Assembly (NCBI GenBank): GCA_021731025.1
Contig: JAKFYD010000028.1
Location: 1-60,124 of the forward strand
Length of the DNA stretch: 60,124 bases
DNA from: Pseudobdellovibrionaceae bacterium
GTDB taxonomy: Bacteria; Bdellovibrionota; Bdellovibrionia; Bdellovibrionales; Bdellovibrionaceae
Direction: 5' to 3'
Shown: in pieces, positions 31,557 through 46,304 of the stretch
How the letters are laid out: each line of letters starts with the position of its first letter
Numbering within the stretch: position 1 is the stretch's first letter
Position numbers and translations under genes: made by a program
The notes under the pieces: model-generated
Told to the model about the DNA's origin: nothing
The model's database searches: none
The model's input: only the letters and a program-made list of their open reading frames with translations

Positions 31557-32933
31557 TTAAAATACAAAAGTATTCGCAAAGTTTTGCATATCCGCAGGAA
31601 CTTGTGATTTTGGAGTCGAAGGTAACAGCACATCGCTTTGATCTTTGATTTCAGTTCGGGCCAACTTAATAGCTTCGTCCAAACTCATGCTTTTGGATTT
31701 TTCTGCAGCCAAATAAGCGCGATCGGGATTAACAAGCCCTTCAGAGAGAACTTTTCCTTTCAGCCAATCTTTACGATCTACCGTCGACATCAACATCTTT
31801 TTAAGGTCCCGAGACGACAAACGAGCATTGATCTCTTTCATTTTCGCTGCGACTCCAGCCACGTAAGGAGCCGCCATCGAGGTCCCCGACATGGGCAACA
31901 ACTGCTTTTGATCTAAGGCTGGCACTGAACTGATGATCGCCACACCAGGCGCAGCAATATCAACAGATTTTGCTCCGTAATTAGAAAATTTAGCTAACTT
32001 AGAAATCCCATTGGTTGCAGCAACTGTAATTGAATTATCAACGCGAACATTCGCAGGAAAAGTTGGCATTGCATCGTTATCGCTACCTTCGTTTCCAGCA
32101 GCAACCACAAACAAAGTTCCCGGAGTAATGGCCATCCATTTTTCACCTTCTGGAATAAACTGAGCAGCTGCTCGACGAGTTTCGTTCGATAGCTGTTCTG
32201 GCGTTGGCTCCTTGATTCCGCGCAAACCCAAAACTAATTTCGCAATCGTTTGCAGGCTAACGCCTAAACTGTAGTTGGCTACGTCAATTTGTCTTTCTTT
32301 AAGATAACCACCCACTTGTTTAAAGGCACCGTTGTTAAGAGCCGCAAAAATTTTATAAAAAATATCGGCTGGACCAATTTTTTTGGCTGCCATCGAAGTT
32401 GTCTGTGTTTTTTGATTCGACATCAACTGACTTTCAGGAGGAGTGTCGGGAAAAACTCGATTGGACATGATCTTTGAGGAAGGCGAAAGACTGGCAATGA
32501 TTCCCGAAACATGTGTACTGTGGGCGTACTGACCATAAAAGTTCAGTCTTGCATCGAGGCGTCTTTTGTCTTCCGGCTTTAGATTCGAAACATTGTCTTC
32601 CCAAAATTGCTGATCTTCACGCGTTGGCGATTCAGACTGAATTCGAGCGATGACTTCAAAATATTTAAAAATACTTGTATCAAGAGACTGAAGATGTTCA
32701 GGGAAAAAGACTCGCCCGTAACCGTCGACGAAATTCCACCCAGTCAGATCATCAACTTTACCATTCCGATCATCATCCACGCGGTTCCCAGCAATTTCAC
32801 GTGAATTCACTAACTCTCGACCCTTAAGCCAAGAGTGTGAGAAATCCGTTCCTGAATCCGTAACGGCAACTTGAGTTGCAAAACTGTTTGTCGCTATTGA
32901 AAATGCCATTAAGGCGATAAAATATTTTTTCAT
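31557..32933 (-). CDS. Secreted subtilisin-family serine protease without propeptide
   Basis: An S8 peptidase of 458 aa. It has a signal peptide (MKKYFIALMAFSIATNSFA), then the catalytic triad Asp26 (VAVTDSGTD), His141 (HSTHVSGI) and Ser352 (MSGTSMAAPYVAG), with oxyanion Asn281 (AAGNEG). The 115-residue spacing between Asp and His is long, with a large insertion. The Asp lies directly after the signal peptide, so there is no room for the usual I9-type inhibitory prodomain. GAGGGG precedes the ATG at 32933; upstream frame to 32990 is not used. It lies 16 bases after the unknown secreted protein's stop, and they are probably one operon. Confidence 0.92.
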   Translation of the reverse strand: MKKYFIALMAFSIATNSFATQVAVTDSGTDFSHSWLKGRELVNSREIAGNRVDDDRNGKVDDLTGWNFVDGYGRVFFPEHLQSLDTSIFKYFEVIARIQSESPTREDQQFWEDNVSNLKPEDKRRLDARLNFYGQYAHSTHVSGIIASLSPSSKIMSNRVFPDTPPESQLMSNQKTQTTSMAAKKIGPADIFYKIFAALNNGAFKQVGGYLKERQIDVANYSLGVSLQTIAKLVLGLRGIKEPTPEQLSNETRRAAAQFIPEGEKWMAITPGTLFVVAAGNEGSDNDAMPTFPANVRVDNSITVAATNGISKLAKFSNYGAKSVDIAAPGVAIISSVPALDQKQLLPMSGTSMAAPYVAGVAAKMKEINARLSSRDLKKMLMSTVDRKDWLKGKVLSEGLVNPDRAYLAAEKSKSMSLDEAIKLARTEIKDQSDVLLPSTPKSQVPADMQNFANTFVF

Positions 32934-32949
32934 AAAGTTCCCCTCAAAA

Positions 32950-34704
32950 TTAATTAACACCAATAAGCTTTTTATTCGCGGCGATGACATTGTCTTCAGA
33001 AATCATTGATTTTGGCAAAAATGGATTTAGATTTTGAATGTACAGCCATTGCAACAACTGACTTTCTTCAGCGTTTAAAGCTGTTCCTGATCGTTGTTGA
33101 GTCGAAAATGAATTTCTCATTAAAGCTTCGTCTAAGATTCCAGAATTCATAAAACCTTTAAGTACGGGCTCAAGTTGAACTACAGCCTGCCGAGCAATGT
33201 TGACACCAAAAATTCGCAGCGCAAGGGAAAGGGCCCAAGTTCCACCGCGACGAAGTGATGCTTCGTAAGGTCGTTGGTAACGGTACAGTAAAGGTGGACC
33301 AAAACTTTTGTTAATAACAGTTTGATCAGAAATCAAAGAGTAAATAGCATCTTTTTTTCCACCAATAGTACAGACGGCAAAATAGTCCTTAACAAACTCA
33401 GTTTGGCATTTCTTGTCCAAAACAAGTTTGGAGTTCTGCTTCGACATCAAAATATCACGCTGTTTCTCGACATTGTAGCGAGAGGCTTTCCCCATAGTTT
33501 CAAAGGCTGTCCAGTCAAAAGGTTTACCTTGAGCGACTGCCAAAATGTAAGTTGTAAACAAATCAGTTCTTTGCCCATGAAGAATGTTAAAGGCCCTACC
33601 AGTATCTTCAGCATTGATACCAATATCAGATCTTCCTAAAGAAGCCGTTCTCAAGGTGTCTTCCAGTTGCAACATTTGATAGCTGTAGGCCATTTCGATT
33701 TGTTCGAAAGCGTCAGTAACCAGAGTTTCAACAGAATTGGCGATCATTTTATTTGGAATAAATCGCGAAAGGCTTTGAATGCCAGAAGATAAGATTGAGC
33801 GGAAAAGTTTCTCGACCGCATATTTATATTGTGTTTGGTAATCAACAAGAATGACAGGCCCTGCGAAAGGCAGAAAATCCCCATCTAGAACAACATCATA
33901 AACTTTTTCTAATTCATTCCAATCAAAGCGAATTCCTTGCAAAAAGCTTTCAGGAGTCTTCAAAACTTTCGTCATGTATTCAGCTTCAGTCGCCGCTTCG
34001 GGAGATGTTGAACGGTAGTTTTGCAGCTCGCTCAAAAAACCTTGGATTTCGTTTTGCGTTTGAGCATCGAATCGATACTGACCAATATCTAAATCAGCAA
34101 TACGAAAGGAGCGAGGCAAACCGTTTTCTAAAAGTGAGGCCTGAGAGCCTGGAATAGCCGAAGGCTTAATGCGAAACTTTAACTTTGCGATCCAACTTTC
34201 TTTAGCGACTTGCAAAGGGTTGAAGCGCTGGCGAAACTGTTCGCGACTTTGCTCGATAGCAGAATAATTTCCATCAAGCCAGTTCAAGTAGTCTCTTGAT
34301 TTTAATTTTTGCACTGGCACTTGCAAAGTTTTTTTCGCTGACAACAAAGTTTTTAAATTTGGAAAAGATAAATCATAAATTCGACAAGGCTTCCCAGCAC
34401 TGTCGCGGGTCAGAACATATTTGCGGGCAAACAAAGTCTTACTAGAGTCTGCACATTTTGGTGTCTGCGCTGCTGCTCGATGAAATTTTTTCAGCTCAAC
34501 TAATGCTTGAGACATTGAAAATGTTTTCGCCGGAATTAAGCTTTGAACTTTTGGAGTTTCCGAAAGCACTCTCTGCTCGAGCAATTTATCATCTTCACTT
34601 TGCTCTTCTTGCACTTGAGCATGAACTAAAGTTGCGCTCATCAGCAGTGTTAAAGAAACTGAAAGTAACGTGCTAATACGTTTTTTGCTGTGGTGGTTCT
34701 GCAT
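32950..34704 (-). CDS. Unknown secreted protein paired with the subtilase
   Basis: A 584-aa protein with a signal peptide (MQNHHSKKRISTLLSVSLTLLMSATLVHA). A mostly helical body has several paired cysteines (for example CRIYDLSF and CQTEFVKDYFAVC). No known domain was recognised. GGGGGAAG precedes the ATG at 34704. It is translated directly ahead of the protease gene, with 16 bases between them. Since the protease lacks a prodomain, this protein could be its chaperone, inhibitor or substrate; that is inference from position only. Confidence 0.75.
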   Translation of the reverse strand: MQNHHSKKRISTLLSVSLTLLMSATLVHAQVQEEQSEDDKLLEQRVLSETPKVQSLIPAKTFSMSQALVELKKFHRAAAQTPKCADSSKTLFARKYVLTRDSAGKPCRIYDLSFPNLKTLLSAKKTLQVPVQKLKSRDYLNWLDGNYSAIEQSREQFRQRFNPLQVAKESWIAKLKFRIKPSAIPGSQASLLENGLPRSFRIADLDIGQYRFDAQTQNEIQGFLSELQNYRSTSPEAATEAEYMTKVLKTPESFLQGIRFDWNELEKVYDVVLDGDFLPFAGPVILVDYQTQYKYAVEKLFRSILSSGIQSLSRFIPNKMIANSVETLVTDAFEQIEMAYSYQMLQLEDTLRTASLGRSDIGINAEDTGRAFNILHGQRTDLFTTYILAVAQGKPFDWTAFETMGKASRYNVEKQRDILMSKQNSKLVLDKKCQTEFVKDYFAVCTIGGKKDAIYSLISDQTVINKSFGPPLLYRYQRPYEASLRRGGTWALSLALRIFGVNIARQAVVQLEPVLKGFMNSGILDEALMRNSFSTQQRSGTALNAEESQLLQWLYIQNLNPFLPKSMISEDNVIAANKKLIGVN

Positions 34705-34882
34705 CTTCTTCCCCCTTGAAGAAAAATTGGTATCATTCCCTGACTGGTCCGATGCTATCGCACTTTTTCCTAGACCCAAGTCTTTTGATAAAAAAATAAA
34801 ATTTGATGTGCTGTGCTAGTGATTTTCAGAGGGGAAAAGAATCGACGTTTCAAAAAGCGAATTGAACTTTGATAAACAACAA

Positions 34883-34924
34883 GGGCAACAAGATGAGAGT
34901 TTTCATTTTGTTGCCCCGTTTTTT
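34883..34924. terminator. Hairpin terminator after the Cys-rich lipoprotein gene
   Basis: GGGCAACAAGATGA (34883-34896) pairs with TCATTTTGTTGCCC (34903-34916), a 14-bp stem with one G-T pair, followed on the plus strand by CGTTTTTT. On the minus strand it lies 20 bases past the lipoprotein stop codon and is followed by the weaker TTGTTGTTT. It could work in both directions. Confidence 0.65.
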
Positions 34925-34935
34925 GTTAAACAAAT

Positions 34936-36963
34936 TTAAGGACGAAAACGCGGTGGTCTTTCCGGTGATGGCCGCACTGGCCCGGGGCGCACTGGCCCGG
35001 GGCGCACGGGACCTGGCGTGGGTCGTGGCTCAACGCGTGGTCGCTCTGGTTGTGGCGCAGGTCGGACTGGCTCCGGAGATGGCCTTACTGGTGACGGACG
35101 AACTGGCTCTGGGCGTGGACGCACCGGCTCCGGAGATGGTCTTACGGGCCCAGGTCTTACTGGCTCTGGGCGTGGACGCACCGGCTCCGGAGATGGTCTT
35201 ACGGGCCCAGGTCTTACTGGCTCTGGGCGTGGACGCACCGGCTCCGGAGATGGTCTTACGGGCCCAGGTCTTACTGGCTCTGGGCGTGGACGCACCGGCT
35301 CCGGAGATGGTCTTACGGGCCCAGGTCTTACTGGCTCTGGGCGTGGACGAACGGGTTCTGGATTTGGACGAACAGGTCCCGGTCGAACGGGCTCAGGATT
35401 CGGACGGACTGGTCCAGGTGAAGGTCGCACTGGCCCTGGGCGTACCGGCTCAGGCCTCACTGGCCCCGGTCGTACCGGGCCGGGTCTGACCGGCCCTGGG
35501 CGAATCGGATCTGGACGATGAGGAGGTCGCACAGGATTTGGCGTTATCCAAGGGGCACAACGACGATCCCCGGGGGACCAGCGCTCGCGGGGTCCACAAG
35601 CTCGATCAATTTCCCGTCGCACGCAATAGCGGCGATTAAAATCGTAGTCTTCATAACCCTGGCAGCGAGGAACAAAATGTCTTTCACATCGACTAGAACC
35701 CCAGTTCCAAACTTCATCCCGATGACAACGAGAATAGTACGAACTCACTTCACAACGAGCATAAATCGAATTCCAGTACCAACCAATCGAGCAATAACCT
35801 ACAGCCGGGCGACAACGGCCAGCATAATTATCCCAGTATTCATTAGATCCACAAGTGTATTGCCAGATACGTAAACAAGAATTTGTTGAATAAGAATAGG
35901 TTGTTCCAATAGGACAAGTGTAAGGCAAGCGATCACAGCGATATTCAAATTGATTCCATCTGTAATTCAGAGGGCATCGAGGATAAGTGCGCATCACACA
36001 CTGACCTAAATAAGAATCAAAAACTTCGTTGTAGTTACAAGTAACAAAGGTTGGAGGAGCTGCGTAGGCCACGCAAGTGTTTGAATCCGGGTTATAAAAT
36101 GTTCCGGCCTCACAAACTGAGCTTCCGTTACCTTGTACACAATATCGCAAACTATCGTTGTAATAATAGCCTGCAGGACAAGCGTACTGATTTCCACTCT
36201 CGTCAAGGATATCAATTTTATACTGACGATAAACCTCGTAGAAGTCAGAGCTATTGACATCATTTTGCGTCCATAATCTTAAGATCAAATTTTTCTGTCC
36301 TGCACTTGAACTTTGACCTTGAATTAAGAAACGGTTCATCGACGTTTGAAATTGAACCTGGAAAGGCTCGATGCCGGTGTTGACCTGCTGTCCTTGTAAA
36401 GAGTTTTTTGCAACCCCCTGCGCCTGCACGTCGACAGGTTGACTGTAGTACTTATTCACTTGAGCAGAAGAAAGCGGGCTTTGTGTCTTAAACTTTAAAG
36501 GATAAGCGGTATCTTCTTTCGCATTCACACAGAGTTCTTCACGAACTTGTGAGCCCGAAGCTTCATCACGAGCATTGAGCTTAAAACACCAAGTCCCGGC
36601 AAACTGGGGATAACCTCGAAGTACAGCACGATTTGAATCTAGAGTTTGCACTTCTAAACCTGGCGGCAAAAATTCATCTTCATCAACAAACCACTGAAGT
36701 TGTGTCAGGTTTTGACCTGCGGCTGAAAGCTCAATTTCTTGATATTGATTTTGTTGCATTTGCAAACTTGCATGGTCGACTAACATCGAAATGTTGTTAG
36801 GATTTGCCAGAACTTTTTCGCCAACGGGTGCGACCGCTTGCGGACTTGAAGCATTGTTTGCCTGGCAAGCCAAAGTAAAAAGCAAAATAATAGGTGCATA
36901 AAAAAAGCGCGCGCTGAGTGATGGTTTTGGTGTTTCCAGAAAGCCCCCTTTAGATTCGGTCAA
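34936..36963 (-). CDS. Lipoprotein with ten C-X12-C repeats and a Pro-Arg repeat tail
   Basis: A protein of up to 675 aa. It has a lipoprotein signal with lipobox FTLAC (Cys about residue 33), then an Ig-like region (QLQWFVDEDEFLPPGLEV, then GYPQFAGTWCFKLNARDE, resembling putative Ig domains) to about residue 260. Ten consecutive modules follow, each exactly C-X12-C and rich in Tyr, Trp and Asn, joined by 6-11 residue linkers (about residues 263-475). The last 200 residues are PVRPGPVRPSPEPVRPRPE-type repeats, basic and probably extended. There is no ATG start: TTG at 36963 has no ribosome-binding site, while a CTG at 36939 follows AAGGGGG. It is likely surface-exposed, and the Pro-Arg tail could span or bind cell wall or polyanions (inference). 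Confidence 0.85.
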   Translation of the reverse strand: MTESKGGFLETPKPSLSARFFYAPIILLFTLACQANNASSPQAVAPVGEKVLANPNNISMLVDHASLQMQQNQYQEIELSAAGQNLTQLQWFVDEDEFLPPGLEVQTLDSNRAVLRGYPQFAGTWCFKLNARDEASGSQVREELCVNAKEDTAYPLKFKTQSPLSSAQVNKYYSQPVDVQAQGVAKNSLQGQQVNTGIEPFQVQFQTSMNRFLIQGQSSSAGQKNLILRLWTQNDVNSSDFYEVYRQYKIDILDESGNQYACPAGYYYNDSLRYCVQGNGSSVCEAGTFYNPDSNTCVAYAAPPTFVTCNYNEVFDSYLGQCVMRTYPRCPLNYRWNQFEYRCDRLPYTCPIGTTYSYSTNSCLRIWQYTCGSNEYWDNYAGRCRPAVGYCSIGWYWNSIYARCEVSSYYSRCHRDEVWNWGSSRCERHFVPRCQGYEDYDFNRRYCVRREIDRACGPRERWSPGDRRCAPWITPNPVRPPHRPDPIRPGPVRPGPVRPGPVRPEPVRPGPVRPSPGPVRPNPEPVRPGPVRPNPEPVRPRPEPVRPGPVRPSPEPVRPRPEPVRPGPVRPSPEPVRPRPEPVRPGPVRPSPEPVRPRPEPVRPGPVRPSPEPVRPRPEPVRPSPVRPSPEPVRPAPQPERPRVEPRPTPGPVRPGPVRPGPVRPSPERPPRFRP
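35105..35349. repeat. 57-bp perfect tandem repeats in the Pro-Arg coding region
   Basis: Four identical 57-bp copies begin at 35105, 35162, 35219 and 35276, each starting GGCTCTGGGCGTGGACGCAC, with a 17-base partial fifth copy at 35333. Each unit encodes 19 residues of the Pro-Arg tail of the lipoprotein on the minus strand. Weaker copies flank the block. Perfect identity suggests recent expansion by slippage, so copy number probably varies between strains. Confidence 0.95.
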
Positions 36964-37202: not shown

Positions 37203-37310
37203 ATATATCCCTGTATGTGACACTTATTGTAACTTACTGGACCATTTTTGGATTAAATTTGATAAAATTAAGCCGATATGTTACAAATAGTGTCACATAC
37301 AGGGATATAT
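37203..37310 (+). promoter_or_regulatory. abiE operator: 31-base inverted repeats flanking the promoter
   Basis: The left arm (37203-37233) and right arm (37280-37310) are inverted copies of each other with only two mismatched positions out of 31. The core word is CCCTGTATGTGACACT and its complement. Between them lies a plausible -10 box TAAAAT (37263-37268) with a weak -35 near 37238-37245, so the arms bracket the promoter. The right arm ends two bases before the abiEi ATG. In characterised AbiE systems the antitoxin AbiEi binds two inverted repeats upstream of its gene and represses transcription; this layout fits that model. Confidence 0.8.
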
Positions 37311-37312
37311 TT

Positions 37313-37966
37313 ATGAAGCCAGTCCGTTCTAAAAAAACCTCAATGAATTGGGAGGCCCTCCTTCCCGAAGTCGACTACCAAGCATTGATGGCCCAAATGC
37401 CCCCCTGCACTCATCCTCGTCGCAAACTTAAAGAGTGGCAAAATAAGGGCTTCCTGACCCGACTTAAAAAAGGTTTTTATGTTTTATCCTCTCAAGTTTG
37501 CGATCAAGTTTACTCGATCGAAATTGTGGCTAATCTTCTTTATGGGCCCTCCTACATTTCCCTGGAATCAGCCTTGTCGTATTATCAATTGATTCCTGAA
37601 AGAGTTGAGGAAATCACAAGCGTAACGACACAAAAAAATAAAAACTTCCCAACTTCCATTGGCCGCTTCACCTACACTCATCTCTCCGCACAGCTCTATC
37701 CGATCGGAGTTGGCCTTCAGAAAACGCAAGATCAAAGGAATTTCCTAATCGCAACTCCGGAAAAAGCCCTGATGGATATTTTTACTTTAAGGTTTCCCAA
37801 ATCTCGCAAACCAACAATTAAAATGGTTCGAGCCGCACTGGAAGATGATCTGCGTTTTTCAATTCAAGAATTTAAAGCCAACCGCGAACTCTTAAATGAA
37901 ATGAAACCCTTTTACAAAAATCGCACGTGGAACCGTTTACTCATTGAAATTTTACTGGAGTCCTGA
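37313..37966 (+). CDS. abiEi: AbiEi antitoxin, type IV toxin-antitoxin
   Basis: Antitoxin and autorepressor of the AbiE system, 217 aa. The N-terminal winged-helix region contains LKEWQNKGFLTRLKKGFYVLSS (about residues 35-57). It is followed by the AbiEi domain with NLLYGPSYISLESALSYYQLIPERVEEITSVTT and the ATPEKALMDIF motif. The open frame extends 32 codons upstream into the operator, but the ATG at 37313 begins right after the right operator arm and fits family length. No good ribosome-binding site is visible because the operator occupies that space. It overlaps abiEii by one base (TGATG). Confidence 0.93.
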   Translation: MKPVRSKKTSMNWEALLPEVDYQALMAQMPPCTHPRRKLKEWQNKGFLTRLKKGFYVLSSQVCDQVYSIEIVANLLYGPSYISLESALSYYQLIPERVEEITSVTTQKNKNFPTSIGRFTYTHLSAQLYPIGVGLQKTQDQRNFLIATPEKALMDIFTLRFPKSRKPTIKMVRAALEDDLRFSIQEFKANRELLNEMKPFYKNRTWNRLLIEILLES

Positions 37967-38832
37967 TGAATCAAGCCGTTAAAGAAATGCTCAACACTTA
38001 CCAGATAAAAACTGGGGCTGAGGCTGAGAACGCTCTTAAAGAAATCATTCAAGAAATTGCTCTATTGGGTTTACACCGAGCAAATTTTTTTGAGAAAGCT
38101 GCTTTTTATGGAGGAACTGCTCTGCGCATTTTGTACAAGCTCCCACGCTATTCCGAAGATCTGGATTTCACTTTGTTCAAAAAGACGCCTGACTTTTCTT
38201 TAAAAGCCTATTTTTCTGCAGTCGAAAAAGAACTTCAGGCCTATGGATTCCAGGTCGACGTTGTCCCTGTGGATAAAAAAAATAAACTTGAAGTTGAATC
38301 AGCCTTTATTAAAGCCAGCACCCAGATTCATCTTTTAAAAATTGAATCCTTAAAAGGCTTTGGAATAAAAACGCAAACGAATTCTAAGTTACAAATTAAG
38401 TTCGAAGTCGATACTGAGCCAATTACAAACTTTCAGTATGAAACCCGCTATCTGCTAGCACCCACCAGTTTCCCCGTCATTAGCTTAAAAAAACCTGATC
38501 TTTTTGCCGGAAAAATCCATGCGCTTTTGTTTAGAAAATGGAAAAACCGAGTTAAGGGAAGAGACTTCTACGACTACATTTGGTACTTGAAAAATAAAAC
38601 ACCAGTGCGGCTCGATTACCTTCGCGAAAAGGCCATTCAAAGTGGTCATGCGGAAAAAAGTGATTTTAAAAATCTGGCCCAACTTAAAGAAGCGCTTTTA
38701 AGCCGTTTTAGCAAAGTCGATTTTATTGCGGCTCAAAAAGACATTCGACCTTTTATCAAAGATGATTCTGAAATTAAACTATGGAATAATGATTTTTTTG
38801 CTCAGGCCACGGAACAGTTGGAAATTGAATAG
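37966..38832 (+). CDS. abiEii: AbiEii toxin, nucleotidyltransferase
   Basis: Toxin of the type IV AbiE system, 288 aa. The nucleotidyltransferase core has GG at 49-50 in FYGGTALRILYKLPRYSEDLDFTLF, with catalytic-type Asp65 and Asp67. Later motifs are LKIESLKGFG, KKPDLFAGKIHALLFRKWKNRVKGRDFYDYIWYL (Lys-His and the GRDFYD motif), all features of the AbiEii/DUF1814 family. It transfers nucleotides and arrests growth, giving phage abortive infection in studied examples; that role here is inferred. It is complete and apparently intact. Confidence 0.94.
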   Translation: MNQAVKEMLNTYQIKTGAEAENALKEIIQEIALLGLHRANFFEKAAFYGGTALRILYKLPRYSEDLDFTLFKKTPDFSLKAYFSAVEKELQAYGFQVDVVPVDKKNKLEVESAFIKASTQIHLLKIESLKGFGIKTQTNSKLQIKFEVDTEPITNFQYETRYLLAPTSFPVISLKKPDLFAGKIHALLFRKWKNRVKGRDFYDYIWYLKNKTPVRLDYLREKAIQSGHAEKSDFKNLAQLKEALLSRFSKVDFIAAQKDIRPFIKDDSEIKLWNNDFFAQATEQLEIE

Positions 38833-38860: not shown

Positions 38861-40900
38861 TAAGAATTGAAGATGCTGGATATCTTTCTTTTTGCTGAAG
38901 CTTTGCACGCTTTCAATCAGGACATGGCGATCAATGGGTTTTGTCAGATGGCTATTTGACCCAAGATCAAAACACTTTTGTCGATCTTCAGCCATACCAT
39001 GCGCCGTCAGGGCGATAATTGGTGTTGAGTACCCATTTTTGCGAAGTTGATCAATTGCACCGTAACCATCCAGTTCGGGCATTTGAATGTCCATCAGTAC
39101 AACATCGTGATGGCCACCCGTTGCTTTTTTAACACCTTCGAGACCGTTATTTGCGACTTCAACTTCAGCGCCGGCCATTGTAAGAAACAGACTAAAAAGA
39201 GCTTGGTTATCCAAAGAATCTTCAACCAGCAAAACTTTTGTGCCTTTCAATGTTTCACTGTTCAAATTTGAATTGACCGGTTGTGGGGATATCCCTGAAC
39301 TGAATTCTTGTATAAAGCTGCTGTCTTCACATAAAGTCACTGGAAAGCACAGGATGAACTCACAGCCTTCTCCAGGAATGCTTTCTTTTATAGAAATTTC
39401 GCCACCCATAGCACGAGCAAGCTTACGTGAAAGTGCTAAACCAAGTCCCGTCCCCCCGTGTTTGCGAGTCATCGAAGTGTCAATTTGGGTGAAAGGTTGG
39501 AAGAGATTTTCAATTTGAGTTGAAGATAATCCAGGCCCAGAATCTTTAACAGAAACTCTCAGCTGAGTCGTTCCATTTTGCACAAAGCCCGTACTCACAA
39601 CGACACTTCCTTTTGGACTGAATTTAATCGCGTTGCCAATCAGATTCACCAAAATCTGTTGAACCCGACTGGGAGACATGATGACTTTTGTAGGAATTTT
39701 ATCATCGATCTTAAACTGGAATTTGAGCCCCTTTTCTTTAGCAGGCAATGACAAAAAGGCTTTAAGTGATTGCAAAAATTCGGGCAGAACAACTTCACTC
39801 TTTTCCATTTCCATTTTTCCAGCTTCCACTTTCGAAAGGTCTAGAATTTCATCGATAATGCGTGAGAGTTGTTTTCCATTGCGACGGATTGCCATAATGG
39901 CTTCTTTTTTTTCTTCGGGATTTACTTCTGTGTCCATAAGGACTTCCGAAAATCCCAAGATAATTCCCAGTGGAGTCCGAATTTCATGACTCATATTTGC
40001 CAAAAAATTACTTTTAGTTTCGTTAGCAACTTCGGCTTGTTTTTTTGCCAAGGTGAGCTCTTGCTGAATTATTTTTTGATCGTGAATATCTGTAGCAACA
40101 CCGATCCAACTGATTGGATTTAAGTGAAGATCAAGTTCGGGCACGACACGAAGCAAGTGCCAGCGATACTCTTGATCAGAACCTTGTCGCAGACGACACT
40201 CAACCTCGAATCCTAGCTGATTCGTTAAAGCTTGATGCCATTTTTCTTTAAGGATCACTTGGTCGTTAATAAATAAACTTTGTTCCCATTGGTCTGCCGG
40301 ATGGTGTGCTGTATGCTCGCCGGTAAATCTGAACCAAAATTGATTGAAGTGTTCAATCTCCCCGACGCTGTCAGCGCGAAAAATAATCTGTGGAATAGCG
40401 TCGGCTAAATTTTGGTATCTTCGGCGGCTTTCAAGCTCTAGATCCCGCAAAATTCTTAAACGGTCACGACGTTCGACCTCTTGCAAGGTGGCCGCTTGTT
40501 TTTCCAGCAAACGACTTTTTTTATAAAGCTCCACGAAGACCGCAACCTTGGATTTGAGAATATGCGGATCAAAAGGCTTTAAGACATAATCAACAGCGCC
40601 GACCGAATAACCAATAGAAATATACTGTTCTGCCCGATTATTTGCCGTCATAAAAATGATCGGAATATTTTTGGATTTTTCCCGCTGTTTAATAATGCTC
40701 GTGGCTTCGAAGCCATCCATGTCGGGCATTTGCACGTCCATTAAAATAACAGCAAAATCATTTATAAAAACTTGGGCCAAGGCCTCTTGCCCCGAGCTTG
40801 CTGTGATCAAGTTGTATTCAGGGCATTTCAAAACGGACTCTAAACTAACAAGACCTTCTGGCCTATCGTCAACCAAAAGTATGTTAGTTTTTTCTATCAT
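38858..40900 (-). CDS. Hybrid histidine kinase: REC-PAS-HisKA-HATPase-REC
   Basis: A 680-aa soluble signalling protein. In order: receiver domain (residues 1-125, phospho-Asp about 56 in [15 protein letters not shown]), a coiled linker, a PAS domain (about 165-285, [27 protein letters not shown]), HisKA with [18 protein letters not shown] (His about 305), HATPase ([41 protein letters not shown]), and a C-terminal receiver ([18 protein letters not shown]). There is no membrane segment. Its start overlaps the stop of the HAMP-array kinase by four bases, so the two are translated together and probably exchange phosphoryl groups. Confidence 0.95.
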
Positions 40901-43900
40901 GTTTGAACCTCAACAAAAGTTTCAACGGGTTGAACTTCTTGAATATCAGACTTTGTTAGCCATGAATGCATTTTAGCCAACAGATTGGTCGAATCCACAG
41001 GCTTAGTGATGTACTCCGACGCACCAGCCGCTAAGCACTCTTCCCTATCGCCCTTCATGGCCTTAGCGGTCAATGAAATGATGGGTAAATTCGCAAATTC
41101 TGGCATTTTGCGAATTTGTCTCATGGCTTCTAGTCCATCCATTTCTGGCATCATAGTGTCCATCAAAACCAGATCAATATCTGGATGATTCTGAAGACTT
41201 TGAAGCGCTAACTTCCCATTTTCTGCGTAGGAAACGGACATTCCTTGTTTTTCTAAAATGCTCGTAATCGCAAAAATATTTCTCATGTCATCGTCGACAA
41301 TCAAGATTTTTTTGCCATTGAAGTCGGCGTTTTGAGGAAGCTCGGAAATAACAAGCTCATGCTCTTCGGCAGATGGTCTCATCGGCTCTTGCCCCATGTA
41401 GTTCTGAGGCAAGAATAATGTAAAGGTACTTCCTTCACCCGGCACGCTATTGACTTCAATTGCACCACCCAGCAGTCGAGCAATTTCACGACTGATAGTT
41501 AAACCCAAACCAGTTCCACCGTACTTACGGCTCGTCGTTCCGTCAGCTTGCTGGAAAGCCTCGAAAATCAATTTCTGTTTATCTTCTGGAATTCCAATAC
41601 CGGTATCTCTAACAACGAAGGCTATAACATTTTTAGCATTCTCTAAAGTTTCCATAGAGAATTTTCTGTGTTTAGGCGCCAATTCTATTGTTAAAGAAAC
41701 ACTGCCTTTTTCAGTAAACTTAAAGGCGTTGGACAACAGATTTTTTAGGATCTGCTGAAGACGATTCTCATCGGTAAACATGCTTCTTGGAACATCGGGA
41801 GTCCGCGATGTTTTAAACTCTAAGCTCTTATGTTCCGCGATCGGCTTAAAAGTTTGCTCAAGATATTCTTTCACTTTTGGCAACTGAATGGCCGTTGGAT
41901 CAACTGGCATTTTTCCAGCTTCCACTTTAGAAAGATCCAGAATTTCATTGATCAATGCTAAGAGATCTTGTCCTGCAGAATGAATGGTTCCCGCATATTT
42001 GATCTGTTCATTGCTCAAATTGTGATCTTTATTTTCCAAAAGATTTTTAGACAAGATCAGCAAGCTGTTCAGTGGTGTTCGAAGTTCATGGGACATATTT
42101 GCCAAGAATTCGGATTTGTATCGTGAAATTAATGACAATTGTTCCGCTTTTTCTTCCACGCTTCGTGAAGCCAGCTCAACTTCTTGATTTTTAACTTCAA
42201 GCAGCTTCGCTTTGTCTTCCAGCTCTTTCGCTTGCGCTTCCAGTTCGGCATTGGATTTTTTCAGCTCTTGTAACAGCTCTTCCGTTCTCATTGAAGACGA
42301 AATCATATTCAAGATAACACCGATGGAATCCATCAGCTGATCCAAGAAATTCAAGTAGTTCTGAGTGAACGGAACAAAAGAAGCAAGTTCGATGACCGCT
42401 TTCAGTTCTCCTTCAAAGAGTACTGGTAAAACGATGATGTTTTTTGGAGCAGCCTCGCCCGTGCTCGAAGAAATGCGGATGTAATCAGAAGGAGGATTCG
42501 TGATCAAAATCGATTTCTTTTCGAAAGCGCATTGACCAACAAGACCTTCTTTCAATTTGTAACGATGAGATAAATTTTTTCTTTCGTTGTAAGCATAATT
42601 TGCGATCATCACCAATTCGGTGTCTTCATGATCACCTTCAGCCATAAAGAAAGTTCCCAAACGAGCATCCACCAGCGGAGTCAGTTCTGACATGATCAAC
42701 TGTGCCACAGAATTGATACTGCGTTGACCTTGCATCATTCCTGAAAATTTCGCTAAATTTGTTTTCAGCCAATCTTGCTCGGTATTTTTTTGAGTCGTGT
42801 CTTTTAAATTTCCAATCATTTGATTGATATTATTTTTTAAAGCCGCAACTTCTCCTTCGGCTTCAACAGTGATGGATCGTGTGAGATCCCCGCGTGTGAC
42901 CGCAGTCGAAACTTCCGCGATGGCTCGCACTTGAGAGGTCAAATTCCCAGCGAGCTGATTCACGTTATCTGTTAAATCTTTCCATGTTCCCGCTGCACCC
43001 GGAACTTTAGCTTGTCCGCCCAGTTTACCTTCGATACCCACTTCCCGTGCAACCGTAGTCACTTGGTCAGCGAAAGTTCGAAGTGTATCTGTCATGTTGT
43101 TGATTGTTTCTGCTAGAGCTGCCACTTCCCCTTTAGCTTCAAGGACGAATTTTTGTGACAAGTCACCATTTGCAACCGCAGTCACAACTTTCACGATACC
43201 TCGCACTTGAGTCGTTAAGTTTGACGCCATGAAATTCACGTTATCTGTTAAGTCTTTCCATGTTCCAGAAACTCCAGGCACTTTCGCTTGTCCCCCCAGT
43301 TTTCCTTCGGTACCCACTTCTTTCGCCACACGAGTAACCTCGGCTGCGAATGAATTCAGCTGATCCACCATCACGTTGATCGTGCTTTTCAGTTCAAGGA
43401 TTTCACCTTTGGCATCAACAGTAATTTTTTGTGACAAGTCCCCATTGGCAACCGCTGTTGTCACTTTCGCGATATTACGAACTTGCGCTGTCAAATTTCC
43501 AGCGAGTTGGTTCACGTTATCTGTGAGATCTTTCCAAGTTCCAGAAACCCCTTTTACATCAGCTTGTCCGCCCAGTTTTCCTTCGGTACCCACTTCTTTC
43601 GCCACACGAGTAACCTCGGCTGCGAATGAATTCAGCTGATCCACCATCACGTTGATTGTATTTTTTAGCTCAAGGATTTCGCCTTTAGCATCAACAGTAA
43701 TTTTTTGTGACAAGTCCCCATTGGCAACCGCTGTTGTTACCTTCGCGATATTTCGAACTTGGCCCGTTAAATTTCCTGCAAGACCGTTCACGTTATCCGT
43801 TAAATCTTTCCAAGTTCCCGCGACTCCTTTTACGTCAGCTTGTCCACCAAGCTTCCCTTCGGTACCAACCTCTTTCGCAACACGAGTTACCTCGGCTGCG

Positions 43901-46134
43901 AAACTTCGGAGAGTGTCCACCATGATATTGATTGTATTTTTTAATTCAAAGATTTCGCCCTTAGCATCGACTGTGATTTTTTGAGATAAGTCACCATTTG
44001 CAACCGCTGTTGTTACCTTCGCGATATTACGAACTTGCGCTGTCAGATTTCCTGCAAGACCATTCACGTTATCCGTAAGATCTTTCCATGTTCCAGAAAC
44101 CCCTTTAACGTCTGCTTGTCCGCCCAGTTTTCCTTCTGTACCCACTTCTTTTGCCACACGAGTTACCTCCGCAGCGAATGAAGAGAGCTGATCCACCATC
44201 ACGTTAATTGTATTTTTAAGTTCAAGGATTTCGCCTTTAGCATCAACAGTAATTTTTTGAGATAAGTCCCCATTGGCAACCGCTGTTGTTACCTTCGCGA
44301 TATTTCGCACTTGCGCTGTTAAATTTCCTGCAAGACCGTTCACGTTATCCGTTAAGTCTTTCCAAGTTCCGGAAACCCCTTTTACATCAGCTTGTCCACC
44401 CAGCTTCCCTTCGGTACCCACTTCTTTCGCAACCCGTGTAACTTCCGCTGCAAAACTTCTTAGAGTGTCCACCATGATATTAATTGTATTTTTTAATTCA
44501 AAGATTTCGCCCTTAGCATCGACTGTGATTTTTTGAGATAAGTCACCATTGGCAACCGCAGTTGTCACTTTCGCGATATTACGAACTTGGCCCGTTAAAT
44601 TTCCTGCAAGACCGTTCACGTTATCCGTTAAATCTTTCCAAGTTCCCGCGACTCCTTTTACGTCAGCTTGTCCACCGAGTTTACCTTCGGTACCAACCTC
44701 TTTCGCAACCCGTGTAACTTCGGCTGCGAATCGACGAAGTGTATCCACCATCGTATTGATAGTGTCTTTCAACTCGAAGATTTCACCTTTCGCGTCAACA
44801 GTAATTTTTTGAGATAAGTCTCCAATTGCAACCGCTGTTGTTACTTTCGCGATATTACGAACTTGAGCTGTCAGATTCCCCGCAAGACCATTCACATTAT
44901 CCGTTAAATCCTTCCAAGTACCAGACACACCTTTAACGTCAGCTTGTCCGCCCAGTTTTCCTTCGGTACCAACCTCTTTCGCCACACGAGTTACCTCGGC
45001 TGCGAATGAGTTCAGCTGATCCACCATCGTATTAATTGTATTTTTTAATTCTGAAATTTCACCACGGGCATCAACGGTAATTTTTTGAGATAAGTCACCG
45101 TTTGCAACCGCTGTTGTTACTTTCGCGATATTACGAACTTGTCCTGTCAGATTTCCAGCAAGACTGTTCACATTGTCTGTGAGATCTTTCCATGTTCCAG
45201 AAACCCCTTTAACGACCGCTTGTCCGCCCAATTTTCCTTCGGTACCAACCTCTTTCGCCACACGAGTAACCTCTGCCGCAAAAGAAGAGAGCTGATCCAC
45301 CATGACGTTAATTGTATTTTTCAATTCGTAGATTTCACCTTTGGCATCGACTGTGATCTTTTGTGACAAGTCACCTTTTGCAACCGCCGTTGTCACTTTC
45401 GCGATATTTCGCACTTGATCTGTCAAATTCGAGGCAAGACCATTCACGTTATCAACCAGATCCCGCCAAATTCCCGAAGCTCCTTTAACGTCAGCTTGTC
45501 CGCCCAGTTTCCCTTGTGTTCCCACTTCCTTCGCCACCCGAGTCACCTCAGAGGCGAATGAGTTCAGCTGATCCACCATCGTATTCACGGTCATCCCGAT
45601 ACGGTGATACTCACCCTTCAGAGGTCGTCCGTCGATTTCCATCGACATTTTTTGTGACAAGTCCCCTTTAGCCACCGAGGTGATAACCCGTGCTGCTTCA
45701 CTTGTCGGCTGAACAAGAGCACCAATGAGGTCATTCAAATCATTAACACTGCTCGCCCAACTGCCTTTGATATTTCCAATAGTCACTCGCTCGGTCATCT
45801 TTCCTTCGAGACCAACGATGTTTCGTACACGTGTGATCTCACCGGCCATATTTTCATTGAGTTCGATGATGTCATTGATAATTTCGCCAATGTCGGAAAT
45901 GACACCTTCCTGATCCACATTCATACGCACGGAAAAGTCACCGGCCCGAACGGATTTGACAACATACAAAAGTTGTTTGAGTTGCTGACGTGAAGTTTTA
46001 TCAGCGTGGTGAAGTGGCGATGGGAAGTTGTCGTCTTTATCGACTTTCCGCTTTGCTCGAAGTATTACACTTTCTGGAATTTTTGTTTTTTTGCCCGTAG
46101 AAACCGATAAAGATTTATCCTGAGATGCCTTCAT
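40897..46134 (-). CDS. Giant soluble HAMP-array hybrid histidine kinase
   Basis: A 1745-aa protein with no membrane segment. Residues 1-192 include divergent HAMP-like units. Residues 193-1112 are ten tandem 92-aa units (for example [20 protein letters not shown] at each start) forming a poly-HAMP array. A GAF domain follows (about 1125-1285), then a coiled coil, HisKA ([19 protein letters not shown]), HATPase ([32 protein letters not shown]) and a C-terminal receiver ([14 protein letters not shown]). The arrangement resembles group III fungal osmosensing kinases and related bacterial proteins. GAGGAG precedes the ATG at 46134. It lies between the OmpR-type regulator gene and a second hybrid kinase in one operon. 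Confidence 0.95.
42799..45558. repeat. Ten 276-bp tandem coding repeats (HAMP array)
   Basis: Each 92-residue HAMP unit corresponds to 276 bases. The central eight units are very alike in DNA, while the first (near 45558) and the last two (42799-43350) diverge. Small variants recur in the loops (VSGTWKDL or [15 protein letters not shown] or LTGQVRN; MVDQLNS, MVDTLRS or MVDQLSS). The patchwork of shared variants suggests duplication plus gene conversion between units. Confidence 0.95.
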
Positions 46135-46304
46135 GAACACTCCTCTAATTTTACGTGCAATCACGAATCAATTTTTGTTTAGTTTAAGATTTAAAAGGAT
46201 TATTTTCACTCGAGCAAACCCTCAATTGCCAAGAGATCTTAACAATCACCTTGTAAAGCAAATTGGTTGTTTTACGCCAGAGATTAAGTGCTGGATTCCT
46301 TTGG

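What the first reader, a model, noticed from the sequence alone, without database searches (positions are those of the whole stretch)
34936..36963. Lipoprotein with ten exact C-X12-C modules plus Pro-Arg spine
Ten consecutive modules keep an exact 12-residue spacing between cysteines with Tyr/Trp/Asn-rich content, linked by 6-11 residues, followed by about 200 residues of PVRP-type repeats. This looks like a modular disulfide-bonded surface adhesin or recognition protein on an extended cationic stalk. I do not recognise the module as a named family.
Basis: partly seen in the sequence, partly recalled or inferred. Interest (0 to 1): 0.7.

Follow-up and report, generated by a model that had tools for sequence, protein, structure and literature searches.

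The report
Ten-hairpin chitin-domain-like secreted protein
A secreted, probably lipid-anchored protein of a Bdellovibrio-related bacterium carries ten copies of a tiny cysteine-closed hairpin that matches half of the chitin-binding domain known from animals; the same ten-hairpin design recurs across its phylum, so it is probably a polyvalent envelope or surface binding protein, though what it binds is untested.

Summary
ORF 36963-34936 (minus, 675 aa) has a lipobox-type signal, two Ig/cadherin-like domains, ten C-X12-C modules with 6-11-residue linkers, and a 206-residue Pro/Arg tail. It is not an orphan: 35 of 368 genomes of the phylum carry a match. In 31 members collected, 25 have exactly ten modules and 292 of 307 modules keep exactly 12 residues. 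Modules keep their position between genomes, so the array is old and fixed, while the tail is a recent 57-bp tandem expansion. The modules match Pfam CBM_14 (peritrophin-A chitin-binding domain) in all 15 members scanned, none of nine cysteine-preserving shuffles does, but only over its C-terminal half. In the PDB a module profile finds the peritrophin-A protein EHEP and contryphan-Vc1, a stand-alone single-disulfide hairpin. AlphaFold makes every module a two-strand hairpin. So this is a chain of ten minimal hairpins, not complete chitin-binding domains. Most likely it is a polyvalent envelope/surface binder of a GlcNAc-type glycan, but ligand and site are unproven and no chitinase goes with it. 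The tail lies distal to the anchor, so it is no stalk.

The parts
34936..36963 (-). whole gene, 675 aa (TTG start; non-ATG start uncertain)
   Evidence: homologous to relatives over its length except the tail
36865..36963 (-). signal peptide and lipobox cysteine (residue 33, ...LLFTLAC|Q)
   Evidence: sequence; relaxed lipobox pattern met in this and 5 of 24 other ten-module members, (one of the five may be an ordinary signal peptide)
36508..36804 (-). Ig/cadherin-like domain 1, with conserved disulfide-type pair C126/C145
   Evidence: AlphaFold model, structural matches, both Cys invariant
36199..36507 (-). Ig/cadherin-like domain 2
   Evidence: Z 9.0, rmsd 2.3 over 86 residues to SraP cadherin-like domain 4m03; profile match to 4m03 E=0.0017
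36139..36180 (-). module 1 CPAGYYYNDSLRYC
36073..36114 (-). module 2 CEAGTFYNPDSNTC
35998..36039 (-). module 3 CNYNEVFDSYLGQC
35935..35976 (-). module 4 CPLNYRWNQFEYRC
35875..35916 (-). module 5 CPIGTTYSYSTNSC
35812..35853 (-). module 6 CGSNEYWDNYAGRC
35752..35793 (-). module 7 CSIGWYWNSIYARC
35686..35727 (-). module 8 CHRDEVWNWGSSRC
35623..35664 (-). module 9 CQGYEDYDFNRRYC
35557..35598 (-). module 10 CGPRERWSPGDRRC
34939..35556 (-). Pro/Arg-rich tail (PVRPxPxPVRP repeats), 206 aa
   Evidence: sequence; composition
35069..35349 (.). 57-bp DNA tandem repeat, 4.9 copies, 95% matches, inside the tail
34883..34916 (.). near-symmetrical 15-bp-stem hairpin 20 nt past the stop codon, possible terminator (T run is on the + strand)
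   Evidence: the number of such sites in the region is not above shuffles

Best explanation
It is a secreted, N-terminally anchored envelope or surface protein built as anchor - two Ig/cadherin-like domains - a chain of ten minimal single-disulfide beta-hairpins - free Pro-rich tail. Shown: the architecture, its conservation, the hairpin prediction and the sequence resemblance of each module to the C4-X12-C5 half of the peritrophin-A (CBM14) domain. Inferred: each C-X12-C closes on itself (as C4-C5 does in solved CBM14 domains and as in contryphan-Vc1); the Ig pair lifts the array off the membrane; the ten hairpins together give polyvalent, individually weak binding to a GlcNAc-containing polymer (peptidoglycan, capsule or another extracellular glycan); and the Pro/Arg (in some species Met/Pro) tail at the far end is an unstructured extension that can touch anionic surfaces.
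For: CBM_14 matches the module region above the curated cut-off (33.1 vs 22.1 bits), in 15 of 15 members, best E 1.1e-19, and in none of nine shuffles that keep every cysteine and the composition. A profile of 45 modules finds in the PDB EHEP, which has three peritrophin-A domains (E 1.5e-4), contryphan-Vc1 (0.003 and 0.009), then weakly the CBM14 allergens Der p 23 and Blo t 12. In solved peritrophin-A domains C4 pairs with C5 across 12 residues (PMC10619976). AlphaFold gives each module a hairpin with strands at C+4..C+7 and C+12..C+15. Position +3 is Gly in 71%, +6 is Tyr/Trp/Phe in 98% and +7 is Asp/Ser/Asn in 99% of 140 modules. N-terminal domains resemble SraP cadherin-like adhesin modules. 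Modules 1 and 4 are strongly conserved (62% and 55%), as expected if function sits in the proximal array.
Against: Each CBM_14 match covers only about positions 28-53 of 53; the half with C1-C3 is missing. Several solved CBM14 proteins (EHEP, Der p 23) do not bind chitin and binding residues are not conserved in the family (PMC10619976). The conserved positions (G+3, aromatic+6, N/D+7) also occur in contryphan-Vc1, so they may be fold determinants rather than a binding site. GH18 chitinase is absent from this genome and does not co-occur with the family (2 of 35 vs 7 of 333, p 0.21). No conserved gene context points to a pathway. Disulfide pairing was not measured. Fold searches with the module model were inconclusive.
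Confidence: 0.42

Rival explanations
1. Pure structural spacer: the ten disulfide hairpins form a protease-resistant semi-rigid rod (like EGF or TNF-receptor cysteine-rich stalks) that has no ligand of its own; recognition or envelope contact is made by the Ig-like domains or the tail.
For: Conserved module positions coincide with those of contryphan-Vc1, a hairpin not known to bind glycans; modules 5-10 are poorly conserved (30-34%); module number is nearly fixed at ten, as for a rod of set length.
Against: Modules 1-4 are conserved at 39-62% in their inner residues and keep their identity by position, more than a plain spacer needs; aromatic residues are abundant (about 2-4 per module).
Confidence: 0.33
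2. Prey-attachment adhesin of a predatory bacterium.
For: Phylum known for predators (relatives named Bdellovibrionales, Bacteriovoracaceae, Oligoflexia); secreted, Ig-like domains like SraP.
Against: Patchy: 35 of 368 genomes, absent from all 24 genomes of the largest genus in the family; no linked predation genes recognised.
Confidence: 0.13
3. Chitin-specific binding protein for attachment to or digestion of chitin.
For: CBM_14 similarity; chitin-binding proteins and chitinases reported in Oligoflexia (PMC8067016).
Against: Half domain only; no GH18 in own genome and no co-occurrence; chitin binding is not universal even in complete CBM14 domains.
Confidence: 0.1

Closest known systems
Pfam CBM_14 (PF01607), peritrophin-A / tachycitin-type chitin-binding domain
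   Same: C4-X12-C5 hairpin with CPxGxx(Y/W/F)(N/D) signature; extracellular, tandem use
   Different: Only the C-terminal half; one disulfide-type pair per module instead of three; ten copies; bacterial, after Ig-like domains and before a Pro-rich tail
[quoted passage not shown]
   Same: C-X12-C, G at +3, Y at +6, N at +7, one disulfide closing a two-strand hairpin
   Different: A single short secreted animal peptide, not a tandem array; possibly convergent
EHEP, 25 kDa polyphenol-binding protein of Aplysia (PDB 8in3)
   Same: Best PDB sequence match of the module profile; tandem CBM14
   Different: Three complete six-cysteine domains; binds phlorotannins, not chitin
SraP cadherin-like modules of Staphylococcus (4m00, 4m03) and He_PIG (PF05345)
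   Same: Fold of the two N-terminal domains
   Different: About 9-12% identity; the window protein itself does not reach He_PIG, 3 of 15 members do

Membership tests
CBM_14 (PF01607) | Profile match above curated cut-off | tested here: met
   33.1 vs 22.1 bits on the module region, 25.1 on the mature protein without tail; 20.0, just below, on the whole ORF; 0 of 9 shuffles
CBM_14 (PF01607) | Complete domain: six cysteines, C1-C3, C2-C6, C4-C5 | tested here: not met
   Two cysteines per module; matches cover profile about 28-53 of 53
CBM_14 (PF01607) | Chitin binding | not testable with these tools
   Needs protein; not universal in the family (PMC10619976)
[quoted passage not shown]
Bacterial lipoprotein | Signal peptide with lipobox cysteine | tested here: met
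   APIILLFTLAC fits the relaxed lipobox pattern; not canonical L at -3; most relatives have none
He_PIG (PF05345) | Profile match | tested here: inconclusive
   No match for the window protein, 3 of 15 members match, best 8.5e-6; structure is cadherin/Ig-like
Bdellovibrio prey adhesin | Role in prey attachment | not testable with these tools
   Needs a deletion mutant

The most novel reading that the evidence does not exclude
A phylum-wide bacterial receptor class in which one of the smallest disulfide hairpins known, half of a CBM14 domain, is used as a tandem repeat of fixed number (ten) with position-specific modules to bind a polymer in register, capped by a fast-evolving Pro-rich tail.
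Probability: 0.2. Interest if true: 0.62.

Novelty: new variant of a known kind. Interest (0 to 1): 0.42.

Why it matters
If right, it shows that half of an animal chitin-binding domain is enough to work as a repeat unit in bacteria, and it gives a defined, conserved, ten-module secreted protein of predatory-bacterium relatives that can be expressed and tested for glycan binding. It also links separately described hairpins (CBM14 half, contryphan-Vc1, BCMA-like) through one bacterial profile, although common descent is not shown.

Tried and rejected
NCBIfam and PHROGs gave nothing useful. phmmer of the whole protein against the PDB gave only composition hits. Foldseek and VIA-align with the four-module model gave no significant match, as expected for short hairpins with little packing; no conclusion is drawn from that. 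No plasmid or viral relatives. Gene neighbourhood: no conserved partner across families; only one family has it regularly beside ExbB/ExbD- and DedA-like genes (named by eye), so no operon function was inferred. Chitin-degradation link not supported by GH18 co-occurrence. The idea that the array is a rapidly shuffling repeat was rejected: the nearest module in other genomes is at the same position in 182 of 239 cases against about 24 expected; only the tail shows recent tandem duplication. The idea that CBM_14 is matched by cysteine spacing alone was rejected. Literature: no paper found on this family in the held library, which misses most subscription journals.

Full report
Observation. The minus-strand ORF 36963-34936 encodes 675 aa. 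It has a signal peptide ending in FTLAC|Q, which fits a relaxed lipobox; two cysteines at 126/145 in the N-terminal part; ten C-X12-C modules at residues 262-469 with linkers 8, 11, 7, 6, 7, 6, 8, 7, 8; and a 206-residue tail of 41% Pro and 20% Arg/Lys. The start codon is non-ATG and not certain.

Not an isolated curiosity. One relative in the family (G033, the same record as LNEB01, 'Bdellovibrionales bacterium Ga0074139') has the same order of parts and again ten exact modules, but a different tail repeat (PRPEPRPEPRPPA). With an alignment of 15 members the family appears in 35 of 368 genomes of the phylum, spread over many families. Of 31 members whose module region could be read, 25 have ten modules, and 292 of 307 modules have exactly 12 inner residues (9 have 10, 6 have 11). 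Named relatives are MAGs of Bdellovibrionia, Bdellovibrionales, Bacteriovoracaceae, Oligoflexia and one Deltaproteobacterium.

Two parts evolve differently. For modules, the nearest match in another genome is at the same position in 182 of 239 cases, against about 24 expected: the ten-module array is an old unit in fixed register. Modules 1 and 4 are the most conserved (62% and 55% mean identity of the inner residues; modules 5-10 30-34%). The tail is made of recent 57-bp tandem copies (4.9 copies, 95%) and differs in every relative: Pro/Arg, Arg-Pro-Asn-Thr, or Met-Pro without positive charge. What is conserved is a Pro-rich, low-complexity C-terminus, not its charge.

What the module is. Pfam CBM_14 (chitin-binding peritrophin-A domain) matches the module region at 33.1 bits, above its cut-off of 22.1; all 15 aligned members match, best E 1.1e-19. 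Nine shuffles that keep every cysteine and the composition give no CBM_14 match, so this is not just cysteine spacing. Each match covers only about positions 28-53 of 53. In solved peritrophin-A domains the pattern is C-X15-C-X5-C-X9-C-X12-C-X5-9-C, with C4 bonded to C5 over X12 (EHEP, PMC10619976). The module is thus that one hairpin. A profile of 45 modules against the PDB gives EHEP, a protein of three peritrophin-A domains (E 1.5e-4), then contryphan-Vc1 (CQPGYAYNPVLGIC; 0.003 and 0.009), then weakly BCMA, Der p 23 and Blo t 12. [quoted passage not shown] 2016, as cited in PMC10501145 and PMC12458967), so one such unit can fold alone. AlphaFold with the family alignment (mean pLDDT 81) makes all ten modules two-strand hairpins with strands at C+4..C+7 and C+12..C+15; modules 1-4 alone do the same. 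Fold searches with the module model found nothing significant: inconclusive for so small a unit.

N-terminal part. Residues 54-255 form two Ig/cadherin-like domains; the best structural match is the ligand-binding region of the staphylococcal adhesin SraP (4m00, Z 10.7 with rmsd 21.0 over 181 residues of both domains, so the two domains are hinged differently; 4m03, Z 9.0, rmsd 2.3 over 86 residues for the second domain), and the family profile also finds 4m03 by sequence (E 0.0017).

How it probably works. Shown: secretion signal, domain order, conserved hairpin array. Inferred: the lipid anchor (pattern present in about a quarter of the ten-module members; the others look simply secreted) holds the N-terminus at a membrane; the Ig pair and the hairpin chain project from it; the Pro-rich tail is the distal end. 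My preferred role is polyvalent binding of a GlcNAc-type polymer, because the module is the CBM14 hairpin and because modules 1-4 are conserved beyond what folding needs. Confidence is limited: CBM14 proteins exist that do not bind chitin, the conserved residues are shared with contryphan-Vc1 and may be only structural, GH18 chitinase is absent here and not associated (2 of 35 vs 7 of 333, p 0.21), and gene context is silent. A plain rod is nearly as likely.

Classification. Not a full member of CBM_14 (complete-domain test not met), though related to or convergent with its C-terminal half; best called a new variant: tandem half-CBM14 / single-disulfide hairpin array with Ig-like domains and a Pro-rich tail. 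I found no description of it in the held literature, which is not exhaustive. Automatic annotation may already call some relatives 'chitin-binding peritrophin-A domain protein' (inference).

Noticed in passing
window 40897-46164 (-): 1755-aa hybrid histidine kinase with at least ten tandem HAMP domains, GAF, HisKA, HATPase and receiver domains, next to a 680-aa PAS hybrid kinase.
   Followed up: partly
window 37217-38832 (+): AbiEii-type nucleotidyltransferase toxin (PF08843) preceded by a 249-aa gene in the position of the AbiEi antitoxin, which has no Pfam match.
   Followed up: partly
L002 1366-1983 (own genome contig C16, 58098-58256): A second, unrelated 205-aa secreted protein in this genome carries the same PVRPGPVRP tract.
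   Followed up: no
L030 4503-7794: Anaerolineaceae protein with a sulfatase-modifying-factor-like domain (by eye) followed by about 18 CPxGYYYD...C-type modules: the module exists outside the phylum in another architecture.
   Followed up: no
L018 1434-2973 (minus-strand reading, G057): Protein with about five such modules at the N-terminus joined to a C-terminal part of other type.
   Followed up: no
L029 5835-7142: Desulfarculus MAG: secreted protein almost wholly made of CPPGxxWS...RC modules.
   Followed up: no
L075-L079: In one family of the phylum the gene regularly sits downstream of ExbB/ExbD- and DedA-like genes.
   Followed up: partly
window 34869-35521 (+): Two long plus-strand ORFs opposite the tail (206 and 167 aa) are most likely artefacts of the GC-rich repeat.
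   Followed up: partly
window 31557-34779 (-): Downstream gene pair: 609-aa protein without Pfam match and an overlapping S8 subtilase.
   Followed up: partly
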